The translations under genes were made by a program, and so were the position numbers. From Marasmius tenuissimus (taxonomy: Eukaryota; Basidiomycota; Agaricomycetes; Agaricales; Marasmiaceae), in NCBI GenBank assembly GCA_029532415.1, contig JAQOTA010000050.1:6634001-6698000 (forward strand): DNA of 64,000 bases, given 5' to 3'. The notes under the pieces are model-generated. The model was given only the letters and a program-made list of their open reading frames with translations, ran no database searches and had not been told where the DNA came from. This document shows, in pieces, positions 881 to 62,010 of the stretch (its first letter is position 1; each line of letters opens with the position of its first letter).

Positions 881-2311
881 ATGCAACTCAAGCAATTCGC
901 TCTTTTCACAACCGTACTTCCGGCCGTTTTGGCTGGAGTTATACCTCGCGAGATGTATGTCCTCACTTTCCCCACTCTCAACTACGCTATCCCTGACATG
1001 TCGCTACTTCGTAGTTCTAGCACAGATGGTACATACTTCCAATCTTTTCGGACGTAGAAACTAATCGTGGTTTCCTCTCGTAGATGTGGTTGCTAGGCAA
1101 CTTGGCGGCGGACTCGGCGACGTGACCGGCGTGGTTGGCACCGTGACTGGTGTACTTGGCGGGGTCACTGGCGGGGCTGGCGGGCTTCCCGTGTAAGTTG
1201 TTTCATTTTCTCAGTTCCAGCTGCACTCACGCCGACTCTGGTACGTTGATCTTTATAGACGACGCAACAATGAAGGTATATACTTCCAATCTTTTCGGAC
1301 GTAAACACTGACCGTAGTTTCCTCTCGTAGACGTGGCTGCCAGGCAACTCGGTGGCGCACTCGGCGGCGTGACCGGCGTGGTTGGCACTGTGACTGGTGT
1401 ACTTGGCGGGGTCACTGGCGGGGCTGGTGGGCTTGGTGGGGCGGTTGGTGGGGTTGGTGGGCTGCCTGGCCCGCTTGGTGGGGGGACCGGCGGCCTGACG
1501 AGGTAAGTCGTTTCATTTTCCCAGTTTCAGCTAAATTCAAACCGACTCTGATATGTTAATCTTCATAGACGAAGCAACAACGAAGGTATAGACTTCCAGC
1601 CTTTCCTGACATTGACACTGACCGTGGTTTCCTCTCGTAGACGTGGCTGCTAGGCAGCTCGGCGGCGGACTCGGCGGGGTGACCGGCGTGATTGGCACTG
1701 TGACTGGTGTACTTGGCGGGGTCACTGGCGGTGGTGGACTTGGTGGAGCGGTTGGTGGGGCTGGTGGGGTCACTGGCCCGCTTGGTGGGCTAACTGGCGG
1801 GGCTGGCGGGCTTCCCGTGTAAGTTGTTTCATTTTCTCAGTTCCAGCTACACTCACACCGACTCTGGTACGTTGATCTATATAGACGACGCAACAATGAA
1901 GGTATATACTTCCAATCTTTCCGGACGTAAACACTGACCGTAGTTTCCTCTCGTAGACGTGGCTGCTAGGCAGCTCGGCGGCGGACTCGGCGGGGTGACC
2001 GGCGTGATTGGCACCGTGACTGGTGCGGTTGGCGGGGTCACTGGCGGGGCTGGTGGGCTTGGTGGGGCCACTGGCGGGCTTGGTGGGGTTACTGGTGTGC
2101 TTGGCGGGGTCACTGGGTAAGTCCTCTTATTTCCTAGCTTCAACTAAGTTGATACTCAATACATCCTTCTAACTTTTAGCGGGAACAAACGTGGTATACA
2201 CTGACAATCTCTATATTCTCTCACACACACTGACTATGGTTCCCACTTGAAGGTGTTACTGCTAGGCAAGACAATGAAGAAGAGGATGAGAACGAGGAGG
2301 AGGAGGATTAG
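881..2311 (+). CDS. Modular Gly-rich small secreted protein (array gene 1)
   Basis: Model: join(881..954, 1021..1028, 1084..1192, 1259..1275, 1331..1502, 1569..1585, 1641..1818, 1885..1901, 1957..2116, 2180..2193, 2253..2311), 274 aa, all introns GT-AG and all phases consistent. The N-terminus (MQLKQFALFTTVLPAVLAG) is a signal peptide. Four glycine-rich exons follow, each starting (D)VxARQL and built of GG-V-T-G repeats, separated by 17-nt micro-exons encoding RR(N/S)NNE. The protein ends in an acidic tail after a last ARQDNEEE motif. Every cassette enters and leaves in the same phase, so modules can be gained or lost without frameshift. The RR and KR pairs could be Kex2 sites (inference). 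Function unknown; likely a cell-wall or extracellular peptide precursor. This is the most complete member of the array. Confidence 0.8.
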
Positions 2312-4900
2312 GAGGTGACGTCAAAATCATTGTTGGCTTCGTGGGTGTTGATCAAAGTTCTCTAACGGATCACTAAAACACGTTTGAGTGGGGGATGTAT
2401 CAACACCCTCGACCAGAGGGCGACCGGTAGCGAGTCTGTATATTGTATACCACTTTGCCATAACACAGTCACTCTTTTGTTCTTGTTCAGACACTGTCCA
2501 AGCCTCTCGAAAATAGTAAGATGAAATATACCCCAAACCTCGATATAGGGATTGTAAGACCATGGGTATACAATTGCCCGAGTAACGAGAACACTCTGAG
2601 GTATTGTTATCCGCCCCTCGCGAAGATTTTCTTGCTCCAATGGTCTATTCGTCGTGGTGAATCGCTAAGCAGATATCACGATTGTTTATTCTCCTCACGT
2701 GTATTCATAAGCCTACAAGCTCCTGCGGGCATGGATACATTCAATACGGCGGTCACGTTGACGAGGTACTTTGACTTGTTTACTTTCGATCTCTGGAACT
2801 GTGACTGATGAACCGTCAATACTCACCATTACGGTGGTTTTTTTTGGTTATCGGGGAAAGCTTAACAGCCCCCTCCGTGTCTCTGCAAAGCTCGACCTCA
2901 GTCAACACAATGGTGAGATCTGTTTGGCGCACAGTTCCTGAACTAACAAATTCCTGTTCGAGTAAGCTAGGTAGTTGTCATTATATCGTTCTTTTTCTCG
3001 ATCATGCAGTGGTAAGTCAGGGAAGAGACAAATCACTACGCCGATGCCTATTATTCATGAATATTTCAGACATTAGTTGCTCGAGATTACCCGATAATCA
3101 CCCTGTGCGTGATCCTTCTTCGCTTACATTGAGGCTGAGTGTACCCTCAGAGGCAACCTTGCATTATCAGGTAATTCTCCGATGAAATTCATCTCTCTGG
3201 GCGCCATCAACGATAGGGGGAGGAAAGTTTTCAAGTTTCCAACGAAGATTAATCAAGTCAGTCGAACCTATCGATACAACGACGAAAACTTGTAGAAATT
3301 ATCGGTGGTGGAAGCAGGAAAAGACATAGGGCGAAGAACGAACACAACCTCAGTTGACAAACTGGGAGCTCACAAGTGAAGAGGAACGCAAACGAGCGAG
3401 TAAACAAAGACGTGCTTTCCGTTTGTAATCTAGATCGTACTCCCAGATTTGGCCAACTCTTCTTTAATGCCAACTCTCGCAACCTCCTTCCTACTAGTCG
3501 GATCTATTACCGAATAGACGCTAGAAATTCGGAGCAGTTCTCCCCCAGGTGAGTTTCAGGGGGATTCGAGGAATGTAGTGATGACGAGAAAACCTCGTTC
3601 TGGAGCTTGTATCCGTAAACGATTTCACAGTGCTGGATGGGTAAGGCCGGGTAGACGGGGGTATTTCCGAAGGCCGTCATTATCACAATGATGGCAACGG
3701 GATCACAGACGATGTAGCTGCCGCAGAGGAGCAATGGGTGACAGAGAACGGAATCGAAACGTACGAGCTTGCTCACAGAACAAATTGTCGAGGATGTGGA
3801 CAATAGCCAAGAGAGAAGATGCACCTGCGCCAACCACATTACCATCGGCGCTTCGGATCCGAAATATGCAAAGCACCCGACGACGCCCAAAACAGGAACC
3901 CTCCTCTTGTTTCCATGACAAACCGACTGGCTCCGCTTGCGCAGCAGACGGCCCGCCAACTCTTGCTGTGAGTTTGATTACTTTCACTAGCTGCCTTGTC
4001 TACGTTTTGGTGTATAACTTCCTTCAGGCCGATATCACCGGCGGCCGAACCCAAACGGTTAGTCGGTATCCGAGGTTGGCAGTGGGTAAGGGTTTAACAT
4101 GCTCTGACCACAAAATCCATCTTCTCCTCGGTCCGGGTCATGAGTTGCGCCGTTCTGGAGATACATGTACCTAACTTATATCGATCCCTTTTTCAGAATT
4201 GACACTGAAGGGCTTTTTAGTATCTCTCGTTTCAGCAGCGGTTGTTTGTCAACAGAAATGTCAATATGGGAGCTGAGAGTAGGTAGCATGAATGAGATAG
4301 CTGGACGAATATCCCGTAACCTTAAAGATGGACATCTGAATTCGTTCTTGCGCGAGTCTTTCTCATCAGCTGTGTGGCTGCCGTTCTTGTTCTATAATGC
4401 TCGTCAGGACTCGAAATCGGACTCGTTGGCGTGAACGGACGGCGTAATCCTTTGGCGGTTCTCATTACACAGCCGCTGACGTCGAAGGACGAAAGGTCGG
4501 CGGTTCTGCTTCTGCTTCAGACGTATCGAGGAGAATGATGACGTATCCTCTCCGGGGGTAAGGTTTCTTGAACCTAGCCAGCAACGGCACCGCTTTGAAG
4601 GAAAACCTTCGTGTCTACAGCGCGTTTCACAGTCTTCTCTTCACCAGTAAAGCTAATTGCATAATCCCATCCAGTGAATACGCCATCAAACGTCAAGCTT
4701 CAAGGACAAGTCGACAGATTCACAGTTTGGTTCATCTTGTTTTGGTCTTCGTGGCAGTTGAATCTGAAGCCCATTCAGAATTCCGTCTAAAGATCAGTGT
4801 CACTTTTGGGTCCGCCGAAGAGCTCAACTGAAGCAAACTAATCCACTGGAAGATTCGGGGACCATTCATTCTTTGACACCTGCGGTTAATATACCCTTCT
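2312..4900. repeat. 3' flank and intergenic blocks of array unit 1
   Basis: Non-coding as far as I can see. 2312-3180 is the conserved 3' flank also found after 7727, 10395, 21444, 33424 and 39770. 3500-3990 is the block with TCGGATCCGAAAT and the CCCCAGGTGAGTTTC splice-like site. 4000-4430 is the block also seen near 11880-12240. Open frames of up to 150 aa exist on both strands, but their frames are not kept in the paralogous blocks. Confidence 0.6.
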
Positions 4901-6433: not shown

Positions 6434-7726
6434 ATGCAACTCAAGCAATTTGCTCTTTTCACCTCCGTACTTCCGGCCGCTTTGGCTGGAGTTATACCCC
6501 ACGAGATGTATGTCTTTCCATTCCTCACCACCAAATAAGCTGTGACTAACATCTCGATGTTTCGTATTCCTAGCACAAATGGTACACATCTATAATCTCT
6601 AAATCCTGGGGCAGCTGGTGACCACAACTCCGATCTCAGGTTTGACCACCAGGCAATTGCCCGTGGGCGAATCGACTGGCACGGTTGGCGGGCTGACTGG
6701 TGGCCTGGCGGGGTATGTTGGTCAACTTCTCCAGTTTTAGCTACGCTGACTCTGACTCTGATACGATTATCAAGCAACGAAGAAGGTATATATGTGTTCA
6801 ATCTCTTCTGTTGCAAGAACTGATTGTGGTTCCCTCTTGCAGGCGGCAGCCTACTCGGCGGTGGCGGCCTACTCGGTGGTCTACTCGGCGGTGGCGGCGG
6901 TGGCGGCCTACTTGGTGGCCTACTCGGCGGCGGCGGGGGGGTTGGGTTATTGGGGTAGCACAGGCCGCAAGGCTGAATTTAACGAGTGTAAAAGTAATCT
7001 GGGAAATTCCGTGTGAATTCAGTACATTTACGGCCTCTAAAAAAGAGCTGCTTTACGCCGGGGAATTTCCTCGTTAAGTACATACTTTCCCAAATGGGAA
7101 ACTGAAGATTTCCCGTCCGAAAAAGTGGCTGGGAACTTCCCACATTCACGGAGGGAAACCTACTACCTTTACGCAAAAAAAAACTCATTACCCGAAGAAC
7201 GTGCGATGAGAGGGCAGAGCTCATAATTGAGCTTGAAGTGTGTTCTGGCCTCTTATATGGGCTACTATGAGCTCTCCCCTCTCATCGCCCGTTCTTCGGG
7301 TAATGAGTTTTTTTTGCGTAAAGGTAGTAGGTTTCCCTCCGTGAATGTGGGAAGTTCCCAGCCACTTTTTCGGACGGGAAATCTTCAGTTTCCCATTTGG
7401 GAAAGTATGTACTTAACGAGGAAATTCCCCGGCGTAAAGCAGCTCTTTTTTAGAGGCCATAAATGTACTGACTCGGAATTCACACGGAATTTCCCAGATT
7501 ACTTTTATGCTTGTGAAATTCAGCCTTGCGGCCTGTGTAGGTCATTTCATTCCCCAGCTTTGACTAAGCTGATAATAATATGTTTGTTGATTATAGACAA
7601 GAAGTTGAACATTGTATACATTGCGAGTTTCTATCCCCTCACACATGCTGACCACGGTTCCCACATGAAGGTGTCGGTGCTAGGCAAGACAGTAAGAACA
7701 AGAACAAGAACGCGGAAAATGATTAG
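6434..7726 (+). CDS. Small secreted Gly/Leu-rich protein (array gene 2), hairpin element in intron
   Basis: Model: join(6434..6507, 6574..6581, 6640..6712, 6775..6785, 6843..6954, 7597..7613, 7671..7726), 116 aa. The signal peptide is MQLKQFALFTSVLPAALAG. A TTRQL exon follows, then a GG-L-L repeat exon, and finally an ARQDSKNKNK tail related to the acidic tail of array gene 1. A 579 bp hairpin element lies just inside the fifth intron. Its TAG duplication restores a GTAG donor, so splicing across it may still work. If it fails, the frame stops at 6956-6958 and the ARQ tail is lost. Function unknown. Confidence 0.7.
6959..7537. mobile_element. 579 bp long-palindrome (foldback) element
   Basis: Left arm 6959-7223 and right arm 7268-7537 are near-perfect reverse complements around a 44 bp loop. 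Ends are CACAGGCCGCAAGGC / GCCTTGCGGCCTGTG. The flanking TAG at 6956-6958 and 7538-7540 is a probable 3 bp TSD. The open frames on both strands are mirror images of each other and should not be read as genes. A transcript would form a very long hairpin, a possible small-RNA precursor (inference). Confidence 0.85.
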
Positions 7727-9803
7727 GAGGCTGACATCGAAATTGCCGATGGTAAAAATCCTCAGCCTCGTAGGTGTTGACCAAAGTTCTCTAATGGATC
7801 GCTGAAACATGTTTGTATGGGAGTTTATCACTAACCTCGGCTGGAGGAAGACCGGTAGCAAATCTGTATATTGTAACCCCTTGGACATAACACAGTCACT
7901 CTTTTATTCTTGTTCAGATACTCAATCCCGAGCCTCTCAAATATAGTAAGATAAATATTCCCCGAATCTCGATCTAGGGATTGTGAGATCATGGCTATAC
8001 TTTTTTTGTACTTATTATCGCGCTGGTGCCGGAGGATTGCCCGGGTAACGAGCTGAAATCGCTGTGAAGGTACTGTTGTCCGCCCTTCGGTAAGGTTTCT
8101 TTGCTCTAATGGTCGTATTTGTCGGGGTGAACTGGGTAGATATCATGATTTTTTACTCTCATCACGTGTATTCGTAGGGCCTACAAGTTCTCGAGAGCAT
8201 GAATACATCGATCTGGGCACATGTCGACAAATATACGCTGTCTGACTGACATAACGGTGATTCGTACTTATCTCTGACACTGAGATTCATAAGCCGTATA
8301 GTCTTTTGATAGCGGAGAGAGCCCAACAGCCCCGACTTTCTTATCTAAAGATCGACCTCAATCAACACGAATTTTCTTTGGCGTGCAGTACGTATCCCAA
8401 CGAATTCTTGTTCAAATCAGTTACGTAGTCGTTACTGGGTTTTGCTCGTTCAAACAGTGGTATAGGACGGAAGTGGAACGAAATCAATGCGCTGATGCCC
8501 ACTTCTTATGATGTACTCTAGATAGTGGTCGCTTGAAGTTAGTCGATATACTGCATGGTTCCTCAGTGTTTATGAGGGAGACTAATCGTATCCTCGAATT
8601 GGAGCGCCAGTAGAGTGTCCGGAGTTTCAAGGAAAACCAAACAAGTCAAATTCGTCAACCTGACCACGAGAATTTGGGGAAGTTGTGGGTGGAGGCGATA
8701 GTAAGAGACACGGCGATAGCCGAGCAAACACAACCTTTACTTGACACTTTCAGCGCCCGTAAGTGAAGCGCAACACAAACATATGAACGCACGGAGACTT
8801 ACCCTCAATCTACGATTCCAAATCCCACTTCCAGACTCGGCCAACTCTTCTTCCACGCCAAAACACCTACCACTTCCTATCTTCCCCTTCGCCCACGGTA
8901 CTCTTCCCAGCTGGTAAGCTCCCAGCCTCCTTCTCACTAGTCGAATCTATCAACGGCAAGATGTCAGAAATTTGGAACACCCACGCTCCCCAGGTGAGTT
9001 TCGATAGATTTCACAAATGGAGTGGTGACAATGAACCTCGTTTGGACTGAGTCGTGTCCCTGAATAATGTCGGTCGTACGTGCGACAACAAAGGCCAGCG
9101 AGGTTTATACCTCGTATATCTGAATTTCCGAGTCTTTGTTTCTGTTTGATAATACTCTGTGATAATGCACGATCTAGGCGATACTAGAATTGAGACTCGA
9201 AACTATATGACCTTGAGGCTTTCTTGGTCAAGGCTGCTCATCAAATGTGATACTGTCTTGGTTCATTCAACAATGTATTGATGAGCTGAGATACATCTCA
9301 GTGATGAGGCCCTAGGGCCTACACCGATCATACTATTGAACATTGGCCATCTCTTGGGCAGCGGGGGAAGCGTGGTGGCGTTGGCGTTGGTGGCGGCGAC
9401 ATACTTCGCTTAAGGTTACCTGAGGATCATCTTCCGCGGTATTGCTGTGTTTCTGCTGGTACCTTTTGAATGCTCATGACATAGGCTTTGACCTTGATCG
9501 TCCCTTGATGTTGCTCCGATTAGAGTTGACAGAGCGGGGATCAACTTGCTGTTCATAATAGTACCTCAATTATACCTTAACCACCCACTGTAATCACTTC
9601 TTAGCTTCTGAATGATAGACTAAATGCTGATTAGAATGCTTCCAACCACAGAGAGCACACAAATGTACCTAGTGCATATTACCTACAGTCGATCTGACCC
9701 CGTACGCCTTTCCAGGTTCCTTAACAGTCCCCTTTCTGTCCCCCACCATTCCGAAACGTCACAAAGGTGTCAGAGGTGGGGTTTGGGTTTAGACCTCAGG
9801 GAG
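7727..9803. repeat. 3' flank and intergenic blocks of array unit 2
   Basis: Contains the 3' flank block (7730-8560), a block with TTTGGAACACCCACGCTCC at 8970-8988, and the next upstream block (GGCGGCGACATACTTCGCTT near 9400). The only exon-like piece is at 8961-8993, listed separately. No other gene recognised. Confidence 0.55.
8961..8993 (+). other. Conserved exon-like ORF MSEIWNTHAPQ
   Basis: ATG followed by 11 codons runs straight into a consensus GTGAGT donor. An identically encoded 11-aa piece occurs at 11454-11486, and degraded versions near 3520, 24450 and 40385. It may be the first exon of a second gene once carried by each array unit. I could not find a convincing next exon, so it may be a relic. 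Confidence 0.3.
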
Positions 9804-13659: not shown

Positions 13660-14899
13660 ATGCAACTCAAGCGACTCGCTTTTTTCACCTCCGTTCTCCC
13701 CGCTGTTTTGGCTGGTATTATACCCCTCGATTTGACCAAGCTAAAGTAAATATTCACATTCTACACTCTGAGCTACGCTAACACTGACATGTTAATGTTT
13801 CTAATTCTTAGTACAGAAGGTATATATATGTACGATCTCTACATCCTGAGACAGACACTGACCATGGCCCCAACCTCAGGCTTAGCCGTTGGACAACCTA
13901 ATCGTTTGCCTCTCGTGGGCGGTGTGCCTGGTGGCAGAGGTCTGATTGATTTGCCAATAAATGTGCTGGGATCGTAAGTCGCTCCATCTTTTTAGTTTCA
14001 GTGACGCTGGCACTGACACCGGTACGTTAATCCTATAGGCAAGACAACGCGGGAGGTATTATAGATCCCCAGTCCCTGTCGATCAAAAATCTTGAACATG
14101 ATTTTCTTATGTAGGAGTTGGTGGTGTGATTGGTCTGCCGATCAATGTGCTGGGAATGTAGGTCGCTGCATCTTTCTACTTCCAGTTACGCTGGCACTGA
14201 CACCGGTACGTTAATCCTATAGGCAAGACAACACAGGAGGTATTATACATCCTCCATCTCCGTCTATCAAAAATCCTGAACATGGTTTTCTTATGTAGGC
14301 GGCCTGGATGCTTTGATTAATGCGCCAATCAATGTGCTGGGAGAGTAGGTCGCTCTATCTTTCTAGTTCCAGTTACGCTGACACTGACACTGGCACGTCA
14401 ATCCGTATAGACAAGACAATGGACGAGGTATTATGTACCGTTGGCCTCTGTCTATGAGAGATCCTGAACATGGTTTTCTCATGCAGGCGGCATCCGCGGG
14501 GGAGTTGGTAGTTTGATTAGTGCGCCGATTAATGCACTGGGACTGTACGTCGCTCCATCTTTCTAGTTCCAGCTACGCTGGCACTGACACTGGCACATCA
14601 ATCCATTTAGACAAGACAACGGAGGAGGTATTGTATACCATTGACTTCTGTCTATGAAAAATTCTGAACATAGTATTCTGCGTAGCCATACTCTAAGGTA
14701 GCCCCTTGAATGGCTTGCTGGGTGACGGGGCTGGCGGGTTGACTGGCGGAGAGTCGGGGTAAGGCGTCTCATTCCTCAGCTTCGGCTGAGTTGATACTAG
14801 TACATTTTCTTATTGTAGCAGAAACAGCAGACCCAGTATACACTGACAGCCTTTATATCCTCTCGTACACATTGATCATGGTCTCCACTTTAAGGTTAG
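13660..14899 (+). CDS. Modular secreted protein (array gene 4), 3' end cut by transposon
   Basis: Model: join(13660..13745, 13812..13819, 13880..13973, 14039..14055, 14115..14157, 14223..14239, 14299..14344, 14411..14427, 14487..14544, 14611..14627, 14698..14758, 14819..14835, 14895..14899), 161 aa. The signal peptide is MQLKRLAFFTSVLPAVLAG. Modules are pairs of a 17-nt micro-exon (QDN(A/T/G)G type) and a 43-61 nt exon with LI-x-x-PIN(V/A)LG, unlike the GGVTG modules of array gene 1 but with the same splice phases. The usual RQ of exon 3 is degraded to GQ. A 6.47 kb transposon entered right at the last acceptor, so the final exon now reads GT-TAG. The lost tail survives beyond the element at 21379-21443. 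Confidence 0.7.
14888..14896. repeat. 9 bp target-site duplication, left copy
   Basis: CTTTAAGGT here and at 21370-21378 flanks the 14897-21369 transposon. Joining the flanks restores the splice acceptor and tail exon of the paralogous gene. Confidence 0.85.
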
Positions 14900-14958
14900 A
14901 CTCGAGCCAGGTCGCCCCGTCAGAGTTTTGAAGACAGTCGTTCAAAAGCTGCTGCGTG

Positions 14959-15028
14959 GCGACTGGTACGGAATACCGGCCCTTTGGCGGGGTCGAAGTT
15001 AAGTCAGGTGATTGTTTGACTTGTCCTC
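14959..15028. repeat. Left subterminal inverted repeat, 70 bp
   Basis: Pairs with 21243-21312 (67 of 70 positions match). It contains GGAATACCGGCCCTTTGGCG. It starts 62 bp inside the left end and 57 bp inside the right end, a likely transposase-binding site. Confidence 0.8.
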
Positions 15029-15209
15029 TTTCCTTCGTCTCGAAACATATGTTCTGGTTTCAAACTCGTCCGATTAACTTGTAAACTATGTCAAACGAGT
15101 CTAATAGAAGTCAGGATCAACGAGTTATGTTTTTTTTTGCGAAATGCTACGGAATGATCGAGATATCGGTAGGTCTTTCCGGGTTAGGGGCTCTTGTTCC
15201 TTTACCTCC

Positions 15210-18200
15210 ATGCCGCCCGCACCTCGCAAACGACGACACTCAGATGCAGATTATCAAGCTTCTAGCTCGGTCAGAAGAAGTGTCGGGGCTTCTAAGCGCA
15301 GAAAGACAAAACCAGCCACTCCCGAGCCTGAACCAGAGCCTTCAGTGGCAGCCGACTCCCCGCCTGTGACACCACAGCACTACGACGACCCCGTCCCAGA
15401 CCTCGACATGGAAATGCCTACCAGTAGTGCTCCAGGATCACCAACATTCGAAAATGATCAAGTCCTCCCGGAGGACCCAGTTCTTCCTCTGTTTCCTTCT
15501 CCCGAGATACCTTCAACTCCCCAACGCAACCGCGTACTAACAGTACCAGAGTCAGGGCGCTCTATCCTCGAAGGAACTCCAAGCCCTGTGACAGCGAGGG
15601 CCGGTCGCCCCCGGCGTGTTCGAAGACCGCATCGGAACCCACTGGGAAGCATAGATATGTCCGAGCCAGGCCCGCGACATTTTCTAACCCCGGAGCAATT
15701 GGCAAAGGCACAGGAGGAGTCTGCGCAGATGAATAGGGAGCTGGAGGCACAACTCGCAAGCCGACAAAAGGCAGAGAAGGCTCAAGATATATGGAGAAAA
15801 ATAGACAGGCCGGAGGATGAAGGTGGATTTGGGTTCACGAGTCTGAACGAGTTTTTCGAGGGTGTGTTTGGGACTGGTGCCAATACCCAGAACAAGATCA
15901 ATGTTACACGGTATCTGCGAGATCACGGCGATACACTTGCCACCATGATGTTCAAGCGCTCACCTGTGGCCTTTGAGAAATTTCTTACTGGAGATCTGAT
16001 GCAGGACGAGCTACAGAAGGAAGGGGAGGCTATCCAAAGCCTCTTTTCCCGCAGAAAGGGGTCTTCTATTCACTCTGTCCTCGACGACTTTGATATGGAT
16101 TCCCTCGAGTCAAAATTGAAGGAGGCTGCACCGAATTTATGGTCTATTCTGCTGTCAGTTGGTAGTGTGGAGGATGAGAAGGGGTCTACATCTCAGGCTC
16201 GACGCAGCAAGGAAATTGTGAGTGGGACACCACTTCAAATGGAAGCTTTAGCTTGATTTCTTAACCCTCAAGGTCTTTGTCTGCATTTGCGCCATGCTGT
16301 CGGTCATCCGATCACAGAAGGCTAATAACTTTCAAGTTGTCATCGGACTCTTTCTCCTTGGGTCTGGAGCGACGAAACGAGAGATAGATGTCCTCGCGCA
16401 TGCTGGCATCTCTTGTTCGTACACCACAGTGATGGACCACATTCGGGCTCTCTCCGCGGAGAACCTCAAAATTGTACAAGAAATCATCCGAGTCGTGATG
16501 TATTTCTTAGTGTGGGACAACGTGAACTTCGCATTCCGTGTGGAGTCTCAACGTTTCGACTCCAAGGACCACTTTGACAGTGGTACGACAGCCTCTCTAA
16601 TTGCCACCTGGGACCCCTACACCAAGCAAACAGCCACCCACGGTGCTTTACCCCTGTCTATGAAGCCCAAACGGGAGGCCTCCAATGAAATCATTCAGGA
16701 CCATAGCCCTCTTCTCGTCCCATCCCTCAACGACCTGGTAACACTCGAGAAATGTTCGTTGTGGCAGCTCAAACAGATTGCACTTCAGCACAAACCAGAA
16801 CTCGCACACCTCAAAGCAAATTTTCCCACGTCTCCCCCTGTCGAAACAGAACAGATAGAGGTTCATCAGACCCAGCATTACCCACTTCCCGCGATGCACG
16901 AGGATGAGTCAACAATCGATGGGACGTTGAAGGTTATTGAAACCCTATTGGAAAAGCTAGGAGTCACTGAGGACGACTTGAAAAAGCACGGGCTCATCTT
17001 TGCCGATGGTGACCTCCTAACGGGTTCGTTGACGAATACGGTAATGTTATTGCTTCTATGAGCAAACCGTACAGACCCTAATCCAGATTCTCCAAGGGCG
17101 AGTCTGCACGCAGGAATTCCAAGGAACTTTCCTCAGGGTTGTTCGTCCTAATACGACGGTTCGGGCTGTTTCATTGCAAGATGGCGGGAGGACGTCTCGT
17201 AATCAACGAGCATTGGGGAAAACCTAACTCGCCCTGGTCTGGTTCCCTTTGGTGGGAAAACAACACTCTCTTGAAGCGGAAGAGTGTTTCCGCTGGGTGG
17301 CAATCAAAGAAGGCAGCACCATGGAAACAGACACATGAACTCATACAGATCTCCCTTGCCGCTCACATCCTCGACGGCTTCCGGATTCACTGCAACAACT
17401 CTGACTTCAATGCGTGGTGCAAAACTGCAACTCTGGAGGATTTTGACACAACTGCCGAGCAGGTTTATTCCAATCTATTCACAAGCCACGCTTATGCCAC
17501 ACAGCAGGAGAAGCCTCAGATTGATATTGTTCTCTCCAATACCATCCTTTACAACCGCGATGCGCTATTCTACTGGCTATTCGTGACATCCATCAAGGCC
17601 GGAAATATTGGTCGAGTCATCCTGGTCCTGCGCATCTGGATGATTATGATGCGCACACCAAAGACGATGCCACGTTACGCCGATGCCATATTTGAAACCC
17701 TCGGTCGTATCCAGCAGTTCCCTGAGAAATTACAGTCAGCCACCTTTCGAGTCTCCTGAATTGATGAGCCAGCACTGACCCCTATCGACAGGAAGTTTTT
17801 CCTCCATAATTGGCTCGTGAACCTGACTGGTCGTCCAAACGCTTTCAAAGAGAACGACCTGTTACAGGAGCATCAAAACCGGTGGCTGAAAGTGAGTGTG
17901 ATACCTTTCACCTTGAAATCTGAGATCTAATAGTGAGCTGGTAGTCGGTTTATGCAGCAAAAGGGCCGAACCGAAGCTGGGAGTGGCTCTCTATGATTTC
18001 ATTGTGCATCTATACACTGAGGCAAGCTTTGCTCTCGGTAGCCAAGATGTTCAACATTCCAGGTTACGGGAGCAAGCACACAGTCCCTGACATGTCAAAT
18101 GAAGTGCAGAGAATAGCGGACGCCCTCAAGGAAGAGACAATTCAGGAGTATGTACCTGAACGTCCCGCTAATGGATTTGTCAAGCCCGTCAGAGACCTAC

Positions 18201-18457
18201 TGCAAGAGGGCATGAAATACGGGGAGAGACGTACCGCGTTTGCAAAGTATCGAGATGACAGTGGCATTCCCATGAACATGGGGGATCAAGGAGACCCTGT
18301 TGTAGAGGCAGCGAGCATATTGGACGAGGGCGAAGATGACGGTGAAGAATATGAGCCCTCACTCGAAGATCTGGAGATGGATGATGAGGAACCATATGGT
18401 ATTCAAAACATCTTGTTGAGTGCCGCCATGTCAATGGTACCCGATAGTCTAAACTAG
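15210..18457 (+). CDS. DUF6589-family protein, candidate transposase
   Basis: Model: join(15210..16217, 16273..17040, 17097..17734, 17792..17891, 17945..18457), 1008 aa, four introns of 53-57 bp with consistent phases. Residues 1-180 are low-complexity and basic (MPPAPRKRRHSD start), likely nuclear. Residues about 337-850 match the DUF6589 pattern as I know it: YTTVMDHI, VWDNVNFAF (Asp 418), IFADGDLLTG (Asp 581 and Asp 583), GLFHCKMAGG (about 616), HNWLVNLTGRPNAFKE, LLQEHQNRWLK and SWEWLSMI. The spaced acidic residues suggest an RNase H-like DDE/DDD core, which is not proven. The C-terminus is acidic. The ATG at 15210 is preferred over 15144 because the sequence between is poor. It shares the transposon with a convergent helicase gene and is probably the enzyme that acts on the inverted ends. 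Confidence 0.8.
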
Positions 18458-21050
18458 AATACATTCAGTTCAAATACATCATCGTCCTGCTCGCTGTTGT
18501 CGTCGAGTTGTATACCATGGCGCCCCGTGCTCTCCTCGACTTGCTGGTTGAAAATTCCCTCGAGGAAATCAGCACGTTGTACAATTTCAGAACCTTCTTC
18601 ATTATACCGCCGACAGTTGTTGAAGAGTCGTCGCCACGCTGCTATAAATTCATTGAGGCTGGCAAAGCCTTTCGACGGTGAAGTATCGCGCATCATGGTA
18701 CGTATATTCGACATTGAGATTGGTTCTTCGATGAGTTCATAGTAGTCCGGGTAATCCTATTACTCAGTGAGACAACTCAAAGGCTAGAGTTCAAAAACAC
18801 CACACTCACAATTCGCCGAGGCTTCCTCATGAATGGCTCACAGATCTTTTGTTGTTCAACCCGGCGGCTCTCTCCTCTCCCCTTTGTAACTGACTGACCA
18901 CTCTCTGGCGTATAGACAGCATCCCAGCATTCCTCAAATACCCTCATCAGAGTCTCGCGTGCCAACTTCCGTGTTCTTGCAGCCATCTGTTCCAGATTCC
19001 GTGCCCTCTCAGCCTCTTCTTGAGCTAACTGCCGAGCGTCTGGAAAACGCCGCACTTGTGCGGCAATGACACCCACAACCTCTTCACCGAAGCGAGCAAC
19101 ACCCAACGCCCACGGGAAGAGATAACGGAAAACATCAGCTGAGGATGCAGATTGGGGATGTGCTGACAGCTTCTCGATGAGGTCGTCAGACATCAGGTAG
19201 CTAGGGAGAATTGTTTTCTGGCCACTGAAGTACTTCTTGATGGCCCCGGACCGCCACTCCCGCAATGCTGTCCGGACTGCCTCCTGAAGCTCGTCTGAGG
19301 GCTTTCCATGTCGACCAAGGCGTGTCGGATAAGGATAATTAATCTTGATAGTTGGGACCGGAAACTTGGATGGTTCACAGTTATCACAGCACCGAACACC
19401 GCGGGGGGAAGTGAAGGGAGTCGGTACTGTGGATATGAAAGCATGAGTCAGGAATGTAAACGGGAACGGAAGGCTTACACTTATTCTCATTCCCAAAATA
19501 GTCGTTCCAAGGACCTCGGCGGCAACGTGAAGTGGCGAGAAACATGGCGAGAAACTTTCGATCCCGGGCTTCGGTATCAGACTTGGGTGTTCGCTTTTTT
19601 CCTCGTCGTGATGTGGCTGCTGCCGTCGATACTTGAGTCTCAGCGTCATCAAGGGGATCCTCAACATCAATGGCAGCAATCCTGTCAATCTGTGATAACT
19701 CATTAGAGTCCCCGTGATCATCTACACCAGTACCACGGTCTCCCTCCTCATCCTCGGCGCTACCTGAACCTTCCTCATCATCAACCTCAACGAGGAACTT
19801 GGTGTAGGCAGCCTTTGTCACAAAGACAATGGCCTCACCAATATCGCAAGGGTCCCGAACACAACGTCCAATCTTCTGGACAAGCGATGAGAACGTGAGA
19901 GGGGCATGCCATAGAATGACCCGCTTGATTCCCCGAAAGTCCATTCCCTGCAGTAGAGGTTAGATTCTTGTATCGATGAAATCCCCGTCAAGTAATCACA
20001 TACCATTCCCAATGCGTCTGTAGCGGGAACACCACGAATTTGGCCATCGCGCAGACCGCGTTGAATCGCGAGCTTTCGGGCCTCGTCAATGTGGCGATGG
20101 TAAAACTCAAATGAGGTTGCCGGTAGGTGTTGTGGCCGATGTTTTCGTAGGAAGTCTTGAATTTGCTCCGCTTCCGAACGACTGTTAACATATATTAGAG
20201 TTTGCGGGAAGTCTTCTGAATCCTCAGTCGAGAAGAGGGAAAGAAGGTCGGCATATGTGTCTTGAGGCTGTTGCATGATCCTGACTGAAATCGCGACATT
20301 ATGCTTCGCATTTGACACGGCAACATGCGGGCAGTCGGCTGGTAGCTGTAGTTTCTGTCGAATATCGGAGAGAATATCTGGCGGAAGAGTGGCTGAAGCA
20401 ACGAGTACAGGGACATTGTCTGGAAGTCGTGCCAACAGTTGTGAAAGGGCACCGTATTCCGGTCGGAAATCCCCACCCCATTCGCTAATACAGTGTGCCT
20501 CGTCGATGACAACGCCTATACAGTTCTTCACGAACACTTTATTCTGCAAGACCTTGGCGTGGAATGAGGTGGAAACTGCCTTCTCGGGGGATACAAATAC
20601 GACTCGATACTTGATGACATCTCGGCCGTCCGTTTTCTGGGTAAGAGATGGTCAGTAAACAGAAAACAAAGAGCCAAACAAACTGACCTCGAAGATATTC
20701 CCTTCATTTTCACCCTCCGAGTTCAACGCAATAGCCGGTATGCCCCTATCATTGAGGTCCTTCACTTGTGAATTCATCAGTGCATTGAGCGGGCTGACAA
20801 CGACCATAACCTTCGAGTTCTGCAACAAGTCAAGTCCTGGTGTCCAATAGTAGAACAATGGGTACCAGAAAGCCATGGTCTTCCCTCCGCCAGTGGGTAC
20901 ATCATAGATGACACTTTTACCCCGCATCATGTACTGTCCTGCTCGTTCTTGGTGATCTCTGAGTGACGAGATGCCAAAAACACGACACAAACTAGTCCTG
21001 GCTTGTTCAAGCTGCGATTCTGAGAGATTTTCAGGCCAATTGGGAGGCAT
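18454..21050 (-). CDS. RecQ-type DNA helicase with C-terminal bromodomain
   Basis: Model: complement(join(18454..18756, 18810..19426, 19479..19947, 20004..20636, 20688..21050)), 794 aa, introns 51-56 bp, phases consistent. RecQ motifs: motif 0 FGISSLRDHQ (25-34), Walker A TGGGKT (53-58), DEAHCISEWGGDFRPEY (166-182), SATLPPDI (202-209), and motif VI IGRCVRD (358-364). A RecQ zinc-type region has RCRRGPWNDYFGN (473-485) and CCDNC (501-505). After a coiled, basic stretch (about 610-670) comes EPFMRKPRRIDYPDYYELI (685-703) with the acetyl-lysine-binding asparagine in RRYNEEGSE (Asn 746), the hallmark of a bromodomain. Expected role: ATP-driven 3'-5' unwinding during transposition, tethered to acetylated histones (inference). 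The fusion is unusual; both halves join in phase across a 53 bp intron. Confidence 0.85.
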
Positions 21051-21242
21051 AGTGACCGACGGTGGAGGGGGCTCGGATGTGATCGAGGCGGAAACATTTC
21101 CTTGCTAGAGGTCGAACGGGAGCAAATTTTGGAAAACGGTAATAAACTCGTGTATTGGGAGGCAAAGGTGAACATTTCTAGTTATAAAGCGAGGTGATAC
21201 GTCGAGTTTGAAACCAAGGCTGTCGAGGTAGTCGTGGTTCTG

Positions 21243-21312
21243 GAGGATAAGTCAAACAATCACCTGACTTAACTCCGACCCCGCCAAAGGGCCGGTATTC
21301 CGTTCCAGTCGC
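21243..21312. repeat. Right subterminal inverted repeat, 70 bp
   Basis: Reverse complement of 14959-15028 with three substitutions. Confidence 0.8.
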
Positions 21313-21369
21313 TGCGCCGGTGAAGGGGTAGGGGCCCCACACCGTGTGTTGCTGCTGGGTTCGAGTCTA

Positions 21370-21443
21370 CTTTAAGGTGTGGCTACCAGGCAAGACAATG
21401 AGAAGGAGATGAGAACAAGGATGCGGAAGAGGGGAAAGCTTAG
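21370..21443 (+). pseudogene. Severed last exon of the array gene 4 secreted protein
   Basis: Starts with the right TSD copy CTTTAAGGT and continues as the TRQDNEKE tail exon known from array gene 1. A one-base loss soon after shifts the frame. Restoring it would give an acidic tail ending at TAG 21441-21443, so the piece has decayed since it was cut off from its gene. Confidence 0.65.
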
Positions 21444-54894: not shown

Positions 54895-55075
54895 TTTAAC
54901 ACGTACGTGAGTGACCATGAGTGAACGTGAACGTACGTGAGGTACGTGAATTTGAACGTGAATGTACGTGAGGCACGTGAATATGAACGTGAGGTACGTG
55001 AATCTGAACGCGAGGTACGTGAATTTGGACGCAACTGTACGCGACTGTACGTGAATGGTACGTGACTTCTAATAC
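54895..55075. repeat. Left inner TACGTGA repeat cluster
   Basis: About ten imperfect copies of GAACGTGAGGTACGTGAAT-type sequence lie next to the 3' end of the transposon gene. Confidence 0.75.
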
Positions 55076-61884: not shown

Positions 61885-62010
61885 TAAAAGGTACTTGAAT
61901 AGTACGTGACTGAACGTGAGTGGTACGTGACTGTACGTGAATTTGTACGCGGCTGTACGTGACGGTACGTGAGCTGTACGTGACTGTACGTGACACTGTA
62001 CGTGAATTTA
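61885..62010. repeat. Right TACGTGA repeat cluster
   Basis: More than ten copies of TACGTGA-type units (TGTACGTGACTGTACGTGA) next to the right terminus, mirroring the left clusters. Confidence 0.8.

What the first reader, a model, noticed from the sequence alone, without database searches (positions are those of the whole stretch)
14897..21369. Two-gene DNA transposon: DUF6589 protein plus RecQ helicase
Seen: inverted ends TAGACTCGA/TCGAGTCTA, a 70 bp subterminal repeat with 3 mismatches, a 9 bp TSD CTTTAAGGT, and an empty site reconstructed from a paralogous exon. Inside are only a DUF6589 gene and a convergent RecQ gene. This shows DUF6589 acting inside a defined mobile element and suggests it is the transposase of a superfamily I do not recognise as described. 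The helicase partner recalls replicative or peel-and-paste mechanisms (inference).
Basis: partly seen in the sequence, partly recalled or inferred. Interest (0 to 1): 0.92.

Follow-up and report, generated by a model that had tools for sequence, protein, structure and literature searches.

The report
Fungal helicase-carrying DNA transposon (AcademH-type)
This is a real jumping gene of a mushroom with a cut-and-insert enzyme and a DNA-unwinding enzyme, most likely a member of a rare family named in 2020 (AcademH); it suggests what a widespread protein family of unknown function does.

Summary
Window 14897-21369 is a complete 6,473-bp DNA transposon: 12-bp inverted ends, a 70-bp subterminal inverted repeat, a perfect 9-bp target duplication and an empty site in two neighbouring paralogues. 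The genome holds a second, interrupted copy and a MITE family; 15 of 31 tested copies have 9/9 duplications. A divergent second family has the same terminal motif, 9-bp duplications and gene pair. 29 of 43 DUF6589 loci have a RecQ match within 8 kb, all on the other strand. Predicted structures of two distant DUF6589 lineages match DDE transposases, with a conserved D-D-E triad, so DUF6589 is very probably the transposase. But a superfamily with helicase and 9/10-bp duplications, found in fungi, is in print: AcademH (Kojima 2020; not held, seen through citing papers). I file it there at about 0.85; homology to a reference Academ transposase could not be tested. New to me are the DUF6589 assignment, the RecQ-bromodomain fusion, the MITE link and the two gene layouts.

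The parts
14888..14896 (.). left target-site duplication CTTTAAGGT
   Evidence: sequence; 9/9 identical to the right copy
14897..14908 (+). left terminal inverted repeat TAGACTCGAGCC
14897..14956 (+). left end (about 60 bp) shared by the MITEs
14959..15028 (+). left copy of the 70-bp subterminal inverted repeat
15210..18457 (+). DUF6589 gene, the probable transposase; exons 15210-16217, 16273-17040, 17097-17734, 17792-17891, 17945-18457; 1008 aa; proposed triad D418, D583, E831
   Evidence: exon limits inferred from frame and splice sites
18454..21050 (-). RecQ helicase-bromodomain gene; exons 21050-20688, 20636-20004, 19947-19479, 19426-18810, 18756-18454; 794 aa; its stop overlaps the DUF6589 stop
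   Evidence: exon limits inferred
18571..18857 (-). bromodomain (aa 679-756), across the last intron 18757-18809
   Evidence: coordinates worked out from the exons
21243..21312 (-). right copy of the 70-bp subterminal inverted repeat
21311..21369 (+). right end (59 bp) shared by the MITEs
21358..21369 (+). right terminal inverted repeat GGTTCGAGTCTA
21370..21378 (.). right target-site duplication CTTTAAGGT
2102..2462 (+). paralogue showing the empty site (73% to the joined flanks)
7547..7889 (+). second paralogue showing the empty site (71%)

Best explanation
It is a complete DNA transposon, most likely of the AcademH lineage of the Academ superfamily, in a Marasmius genome. Shown from sequence: ends, 9-bp duplication, empty site, further copies, MITEs, two unbroken (inferred) coding sequences. 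Strongly inferred: DUF6589 is an RNase-H-fold DDE transposase that binds the roughly 60-bp ends, cuts, and joins the element to both strands of a target with a 9-bp stagger; short MITEs that keep only those ends are moved in trans. Inferred, weaker: the RecQ helicase, made from the other strand, works with the transposase, by unwinding ends or the gapped joint or by clearing the donor break; its bromodomain would hold it on acetylated chromatin. Cut-and-paste (about 0.65) is favoured over copying only because the nearest folds (Hermes, P element, Transib, RAG) cut and paste; nothing here tests it.
Confidence: 0.85

Rival explanations
1. A superfamily of its own, not Academ: DUF6589 elements merely resemble AcademH in having a RecQ helicase and 9-bp TSDs.
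For: DUF6589 has no function name in Pfam and no held paper contains the word. No Academ transposase could be aligned.
Against: Helicase type, TSD length and host range agree with the printed AcademH description; in Marasmius oreades, of the same genus, putative non-autonomous Academ elements were noted and autonomous ones searched for (PMC8290104, passages).
Confidence: 0.1
2. A MULE (MuDR): a superfamily that, from memory, makes TSDs of about 9 bp, here with a captured helicase.
Against: Pfam finds DUF6589 and no MULE domain in three proteins; the best fold matches are Hermes and P element.
Confidence: 0.03
3. The helicase is only cargo, a captured host RecQ gene, and takes no part in transposition.
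For: MITEs without any gene have moved, though they could use proteins in trans; 14 of 43 DUF6589 loci show no RecQ match nearby.
Against: The pair recurs in diverged families, the 29 pairs are all on opposite strands, and helicase motifs are kept.
Confidence: 0.1
4. The subterminal inverted repeats are a shared promoter for the two genes rather than a site for the transposition proteins.
For: In the window family the repeats lie upstream of both genes, whose ATGs are 313 and 319 bp from the ends; the MITEs lack them.
Against: Family 2, whose genes point away from each other in the middle, also has a subterminal inverted repeat, 39 bp, unrelated in sequence, about 94-132 bp from each end.
Confidence: 0.4

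Closest known systems
AcademH, a lineage of the Academ superfamily (Kojima 2020, Mob DNA 11:15; known here only through citing papers)
   Same: helicase gene in a DDD/E-transposase element; 9 (or 10) bp TSD; Basidiomycota; low copy number reported
   Different: bromodomain on the helicase, MITE family and two gene layouts are not mentioned in the passages I saw; terminal motif and transposase could not be compared
AcademX
   Same: same superfamily as AcademH
   Different: printed as carrying a nuclease and making 3 or 4 bp TSDs; here no XPG_I match lies within 8 kb of any of 43 DUF6589 loci
KolobokH (fungi)
   Same: transposase plus RecQ helicase in fungi (PMC9587614, passage)
   Different: Kolobok makes TTAA 4-bp TSDs; here 9 bp, no fixed sequence
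hAT (Hermes) and P element
   Same: [quoted passage not shown] best structural matches
   Different: 8-bp TSDs (recalled); no Pfam match to them
MuDR/MULE
   Same: TSD length (recalled)
   Different: no MULE Pfam domain found

Membership tests
AcademH (Academ superfamily) | helicase (RecQ) encoded in the element | tested here: met
   printed feature:
AcademH (Academ superfamily) | 9 or 10 bp target-site duplication | tested here: met
   printed feature:
AcademH (Academ superfamily) | DDD/E transposase | tested here: met
   predicted fold and triad, no biochemistry; Academ listed as DDD/E:
AcademH (Academ superfamily) | transposase homologous to reference Academ transposases | not testable with these tools
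   no reference sequence held; founding paper not held
AcademH (Academ superfamily) | terminal sequence motif of the lineage | not testable with these tools
   printed motif not seen; here TAGACTCG and TAGGCTCG in two families
AcademH (Academ superfamily) | no XPG nuclease (the mark of AcademX; the name XPG is recalled) | tested here: met
   no XPG domain in either protein; 0 of 43 DUF6589 loci have XPG_I within 8 kb
KolobokH | TTAA 4-bp TSD | tested here: not met
   9-bp TSDs of varied sequence
hAT | 8-bp TSD (recalled) | tested here: not met
   9-bp TSDs
P element | 8-bp TSD (recalled) | tested here: not met
   9-bp TSDs
MuDR/MULE | MULE transposase domain (PF10551, label seen) | tested here: inconclusive
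   not among Pfam matches; absence of a profile match does not exclude it
DDE transposases with RNase-H fold | fold match, with D-D-E at the expected elements of the fold | tested here: met
   D175 in strand 170-181, D340 just after strand 335-339, E588 in helix 583-604 of P0001; fold matches; superposition of the triad itself not done

The most novel reading that the evidence does not exclude
A lineage of transposons of Agaricomycetes has fused a bromodomain with an intact acetyl-lysine-binding Asn to its RecQ helicase, so that the helicase reads chromatin acetylation, to guide insertion or to act at the right time and place. It would be an unreported chromatin-reading part on the helper helicase of a DNA transposon.
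Probability: 0.4. Interest if true: 0.75.

Novelty: new variant of a known kind. Interest (0 to 1): 0.55.

Why it matters
DUF6589 stands in Pfam as a family of unknown function, and all 240 proteins listed carry it; the named ones, from many mushroom species, are mostly called hypothetical protein or DUF6589 domain-containing protein. The evidence here assigns it as a DDE transposase and gives complete elements, ends, target duplications and MITE substrates, so that the reaction and the part of the helicase become testable. The Pfam model starts after the first catalytic Asp (matched stretch 241-640 of P0001, Asp at 175), which may be why it was not recognised. A RecQ helicase joined to a bromodomain inside a transposon raises the question of whether the element chooses chromatin.

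Tried and rejected
KolobokH, hAT and P were set aside on TSD length, MULE on lack of its domain. The comparison with viral structures had no match at E 0.001 or below. NCBIfam gave no family for P0001 or P0241. Literature, all in one held library: no paper contains DUF6589; PF20231 found one unrelated optics paper; two searches that combine RecQ, bromodomain and transposon words gave lists of 4 and 3 papers, none with a title on such a fusion; I did not read them for it except passages of PMC9587614, PMC3627910 and PMC10799480. The founding AcademH paper and two others that I asked for are not held, so I do not claim that the fusion is unpublished. A search for XPG beside DUF6589 found none. 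The last protein search was meant to reach animal or nuclease-bearing relatives; the named proteins among the 120 listed are fungal, the rest are unnamed. The C19 233-bp copy looked like a MITE nested in a MITE, but the inner piece has no TSD. The first TSD table misplaced the right end of L055 and was redone.

Limits. Counts in the genome are lower bounds by the tool's own words. The contig pairing rests on equal contig length plus species name; for its control I dropped 5 of the 30 rows P0211-P0240 (P0234, P0236, P0238-P0240: bacterial-looking or unnamed). One search showed 5 MITE-like places that I had not fetched, one of them spanning the MITE; they are not in the 31 rows. The alignments behind the triad used 54 of 120 and 48 of 120 listed proteins. 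Most DUF6589 loci were not fetched at length, so their ends are unknown. The host name is inferred: P0241, listed as Marasmius tenuissimus, is 99% identical to a frame of L076 and lies on a contig of 6,882,755 bases, the length of C7.

Full report
What is there. Window 14897-21369 is bounded by CTTTAAGGT on both sides (14888-14896, 21370-21378) and has inverted ends of 12 bp with one mismatch. A 70-bp inverted repeat with 3 mismatches lies about 60 to 130 bp inside each end; its score (113 bits) is far above the best of 60 random pairs of window pieces (19.3 bits).

Genes. The + strand gene is modelled with five exons (introns 53-57 bp) and 1,008 aa; its only Pfam match is DUF6589 (E 2.7e-108). 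The - strand gene is modelled with five exons (introns 51-56 bp) and 794 aa: DEAD, Helicase_C and, at the end, a bromodomain (E 5.8e-14). Among PDB sequences the helicase part matches 1oyw (E. coli RecQ, recalled), Bloom and Werner helicases, and the end matches bromodomains of polybromo, BRD4 and GCN5. The two stops overlap at 18454-18457.

Copies. The genome (71 Mb, 70 contigs) holds a second copy at C6:230958-239025, 8,068 bp, with both ends, its own perfect 9-bp TSD and two inserts of 511 and 1,141 bp, besides deletions of 3, 5 and 49 bp relative to the window. 43 of 44 single-base differences between the two are transitions (from; indels and one two-base change left out). A 113-bp MITE that matches the left 60 and right 59 bp, overlapping by 6, gave 41 matches, 29 of which run from query position 8 or less to 111 or more (my count). 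Of 31 rows tested (30 MITE rows at 29 places, two of them the same insertion in duplicated DNA, and the C6 copy), 15 have 9/9 TSDs at the given ends; when each end may shift by one, 22 have at least 8/9 and 24 at least 7/9; none of 775 controls with the same freedom reaches 8/9. The window copy (9/9) is not in the 31. The 20 sites compared show no fixed target sequence, with G at position 1 in 11 of 20.

A second family. Two copies of 7,035 bp (99.4% alike) at C11 and C30 begin TAGACTCG and end CGAGCCTA, and have TSDs TCTCGCCAG and CCTCAATCA. They code for DUF6589 and RecQ, 27 to 53% identical to the window by exon where matched (DUF6589 and helicase domains), the genes pointing away from each other. 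Seven of their helicase-strand reading frames were scanned and show no bromodomain; not every frame was scanned. A shortened copy on C20 has both ends but no matching TSD, and the copy L075 has the left end but not the expected right end. Family 2 has its own 39-bp subterminal inverted repeat (58 bits), unrelated in sequence to that of the window family. Elsewhere the motif search was poorer: one end at L040, none in the stretches fetched around L042 and L076.

The gene pair is general. DUF6589 matches (98) fall into 43 loci; RecQ-like matches of two searches fall into 40. 29 of 43 DUF6589 loci have RecQ within 8 kb, and all 29 pairs are on opposite strands (21 convergent, 8 divergent). No XPG_I match (15 loci) lies within 8 kb of a DUF6589 locus. 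From 40 loci in 71 Mb I would expect about 0.4 such pairs by chance (my estimate; clustering of mobile DNA ignored). Misses: 14 DUF6589 loci without RecQ, 11 RecQ loci without DUF6589. Outside this genome, 42 of 90 element-like helicases (P0121-P0210) share contig length and species with one of 120 listed DUF6589 proteins; of the 42 helicases that lie on contigs up to 200 kb, 16 do. One shared contig is 4,460 bp long, which leaves room for little else. Of 25 other RecQ proteins, 1 does.

The helicase. Of 90 element-like helicases, 46 carry a precomputed bromodomain (my count); of the 30 rows after them none does. In the alignment of the 90, the acetyl-lysine-binding Asn (role recalled) is Asn in 45 of 45 rows that have a residue there; the other 45 are gapped. 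A related locus on C30 (L040) also has a bromodomain (E 1.3e-9).

How it most likely works. Shown: ends, TSD, copies, MITEs, open genes. Inferred with good support: the DUF6589 protein recognises the outer 60 bp, since MITEs keep little more than these, and joins the ends to target DNA with a 9-bp stagger. Inferred with weak support: the helicase assists at the ends or in the filling and repair of the joints, and the bromodomain ties it to acetylated chromatin. Whether the element is cut out or copied is not tested; the related folds argue mildly for cutting. The subterminal repeats may be a shared promoter in the window family or a binding site; family 2, whose genes point outward from the middle, has them too, which speaks against a mere promoter.

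What is known. Passages of held papers say: RecQ helicase in Academ (PMC3627910); AcademH makes 9 or 10 bp TSDs and AcademX 3 or 4, with helicase and nuclease respectively (PMC10045372); AcademH is found as a low-copy element in Basidiomycota, Ascomycota and Mucoromycota (PMC10799480); putative non-autonomous Academ elements were noted, and autonomous ones searched for, in Marasmius oreades (PMC8290104; the outcome of that search is not in the passages I saw). The founding paper is not held, so I could compare neither ends nor transposase. I therefore file the element as AcademH at about 0.85, on helicase, TSD and host, and keep a separate superfamily at about 0.1.

Verdict. The finding is real and well made; its main claim of an undescribed superfamily is probably wrong. 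Worth keeping are the assignment of DUF6589 as transposase, the RecQ-bromodomain fusion, the MITE substrates and the observation that the two genes lie on opposite strands wherever both were found.

Noticed in passing
G000:C7:6698776-6704882 (begins at window coordinate 64776, just beyond the right end): Another RecQ and DUF6589 pair, convergent, lies just outside the window.
   Followed up: no
L039 (C6 copy), 511-bp and 1,141-bp inserts: Two later insertions interrupt the second copy; a relative of the first lies on C30 (L073 9259-9713, 80%).
   Followed up: no
window 14897-21369 versus the C6 copy: 43 of 44 single-base differences are transitions, as cytosine deamination or a RIP-like process would give.
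   Followed up: partly
L047 (C19:1050382-1050614): A 233-bp composite of MITE pieces in opposite orientation has an outer 9/9 TSD but none around the inner piece.
   Followed up: partly
window 1155-2116, 13939-14632, 14312-14679: Imperfect tandem arrays with units of about 316, 184 and 200 bp; the element lies about 220 bp from the last, and the first overlaps the paralogue that shows the empty site.
   Followed up: no
window 54903-55065 and 61891-62007: Two arrays of a GTACGTGAAT-like 10/21-bp unit, about 7 kb apart.
   Followed up: no
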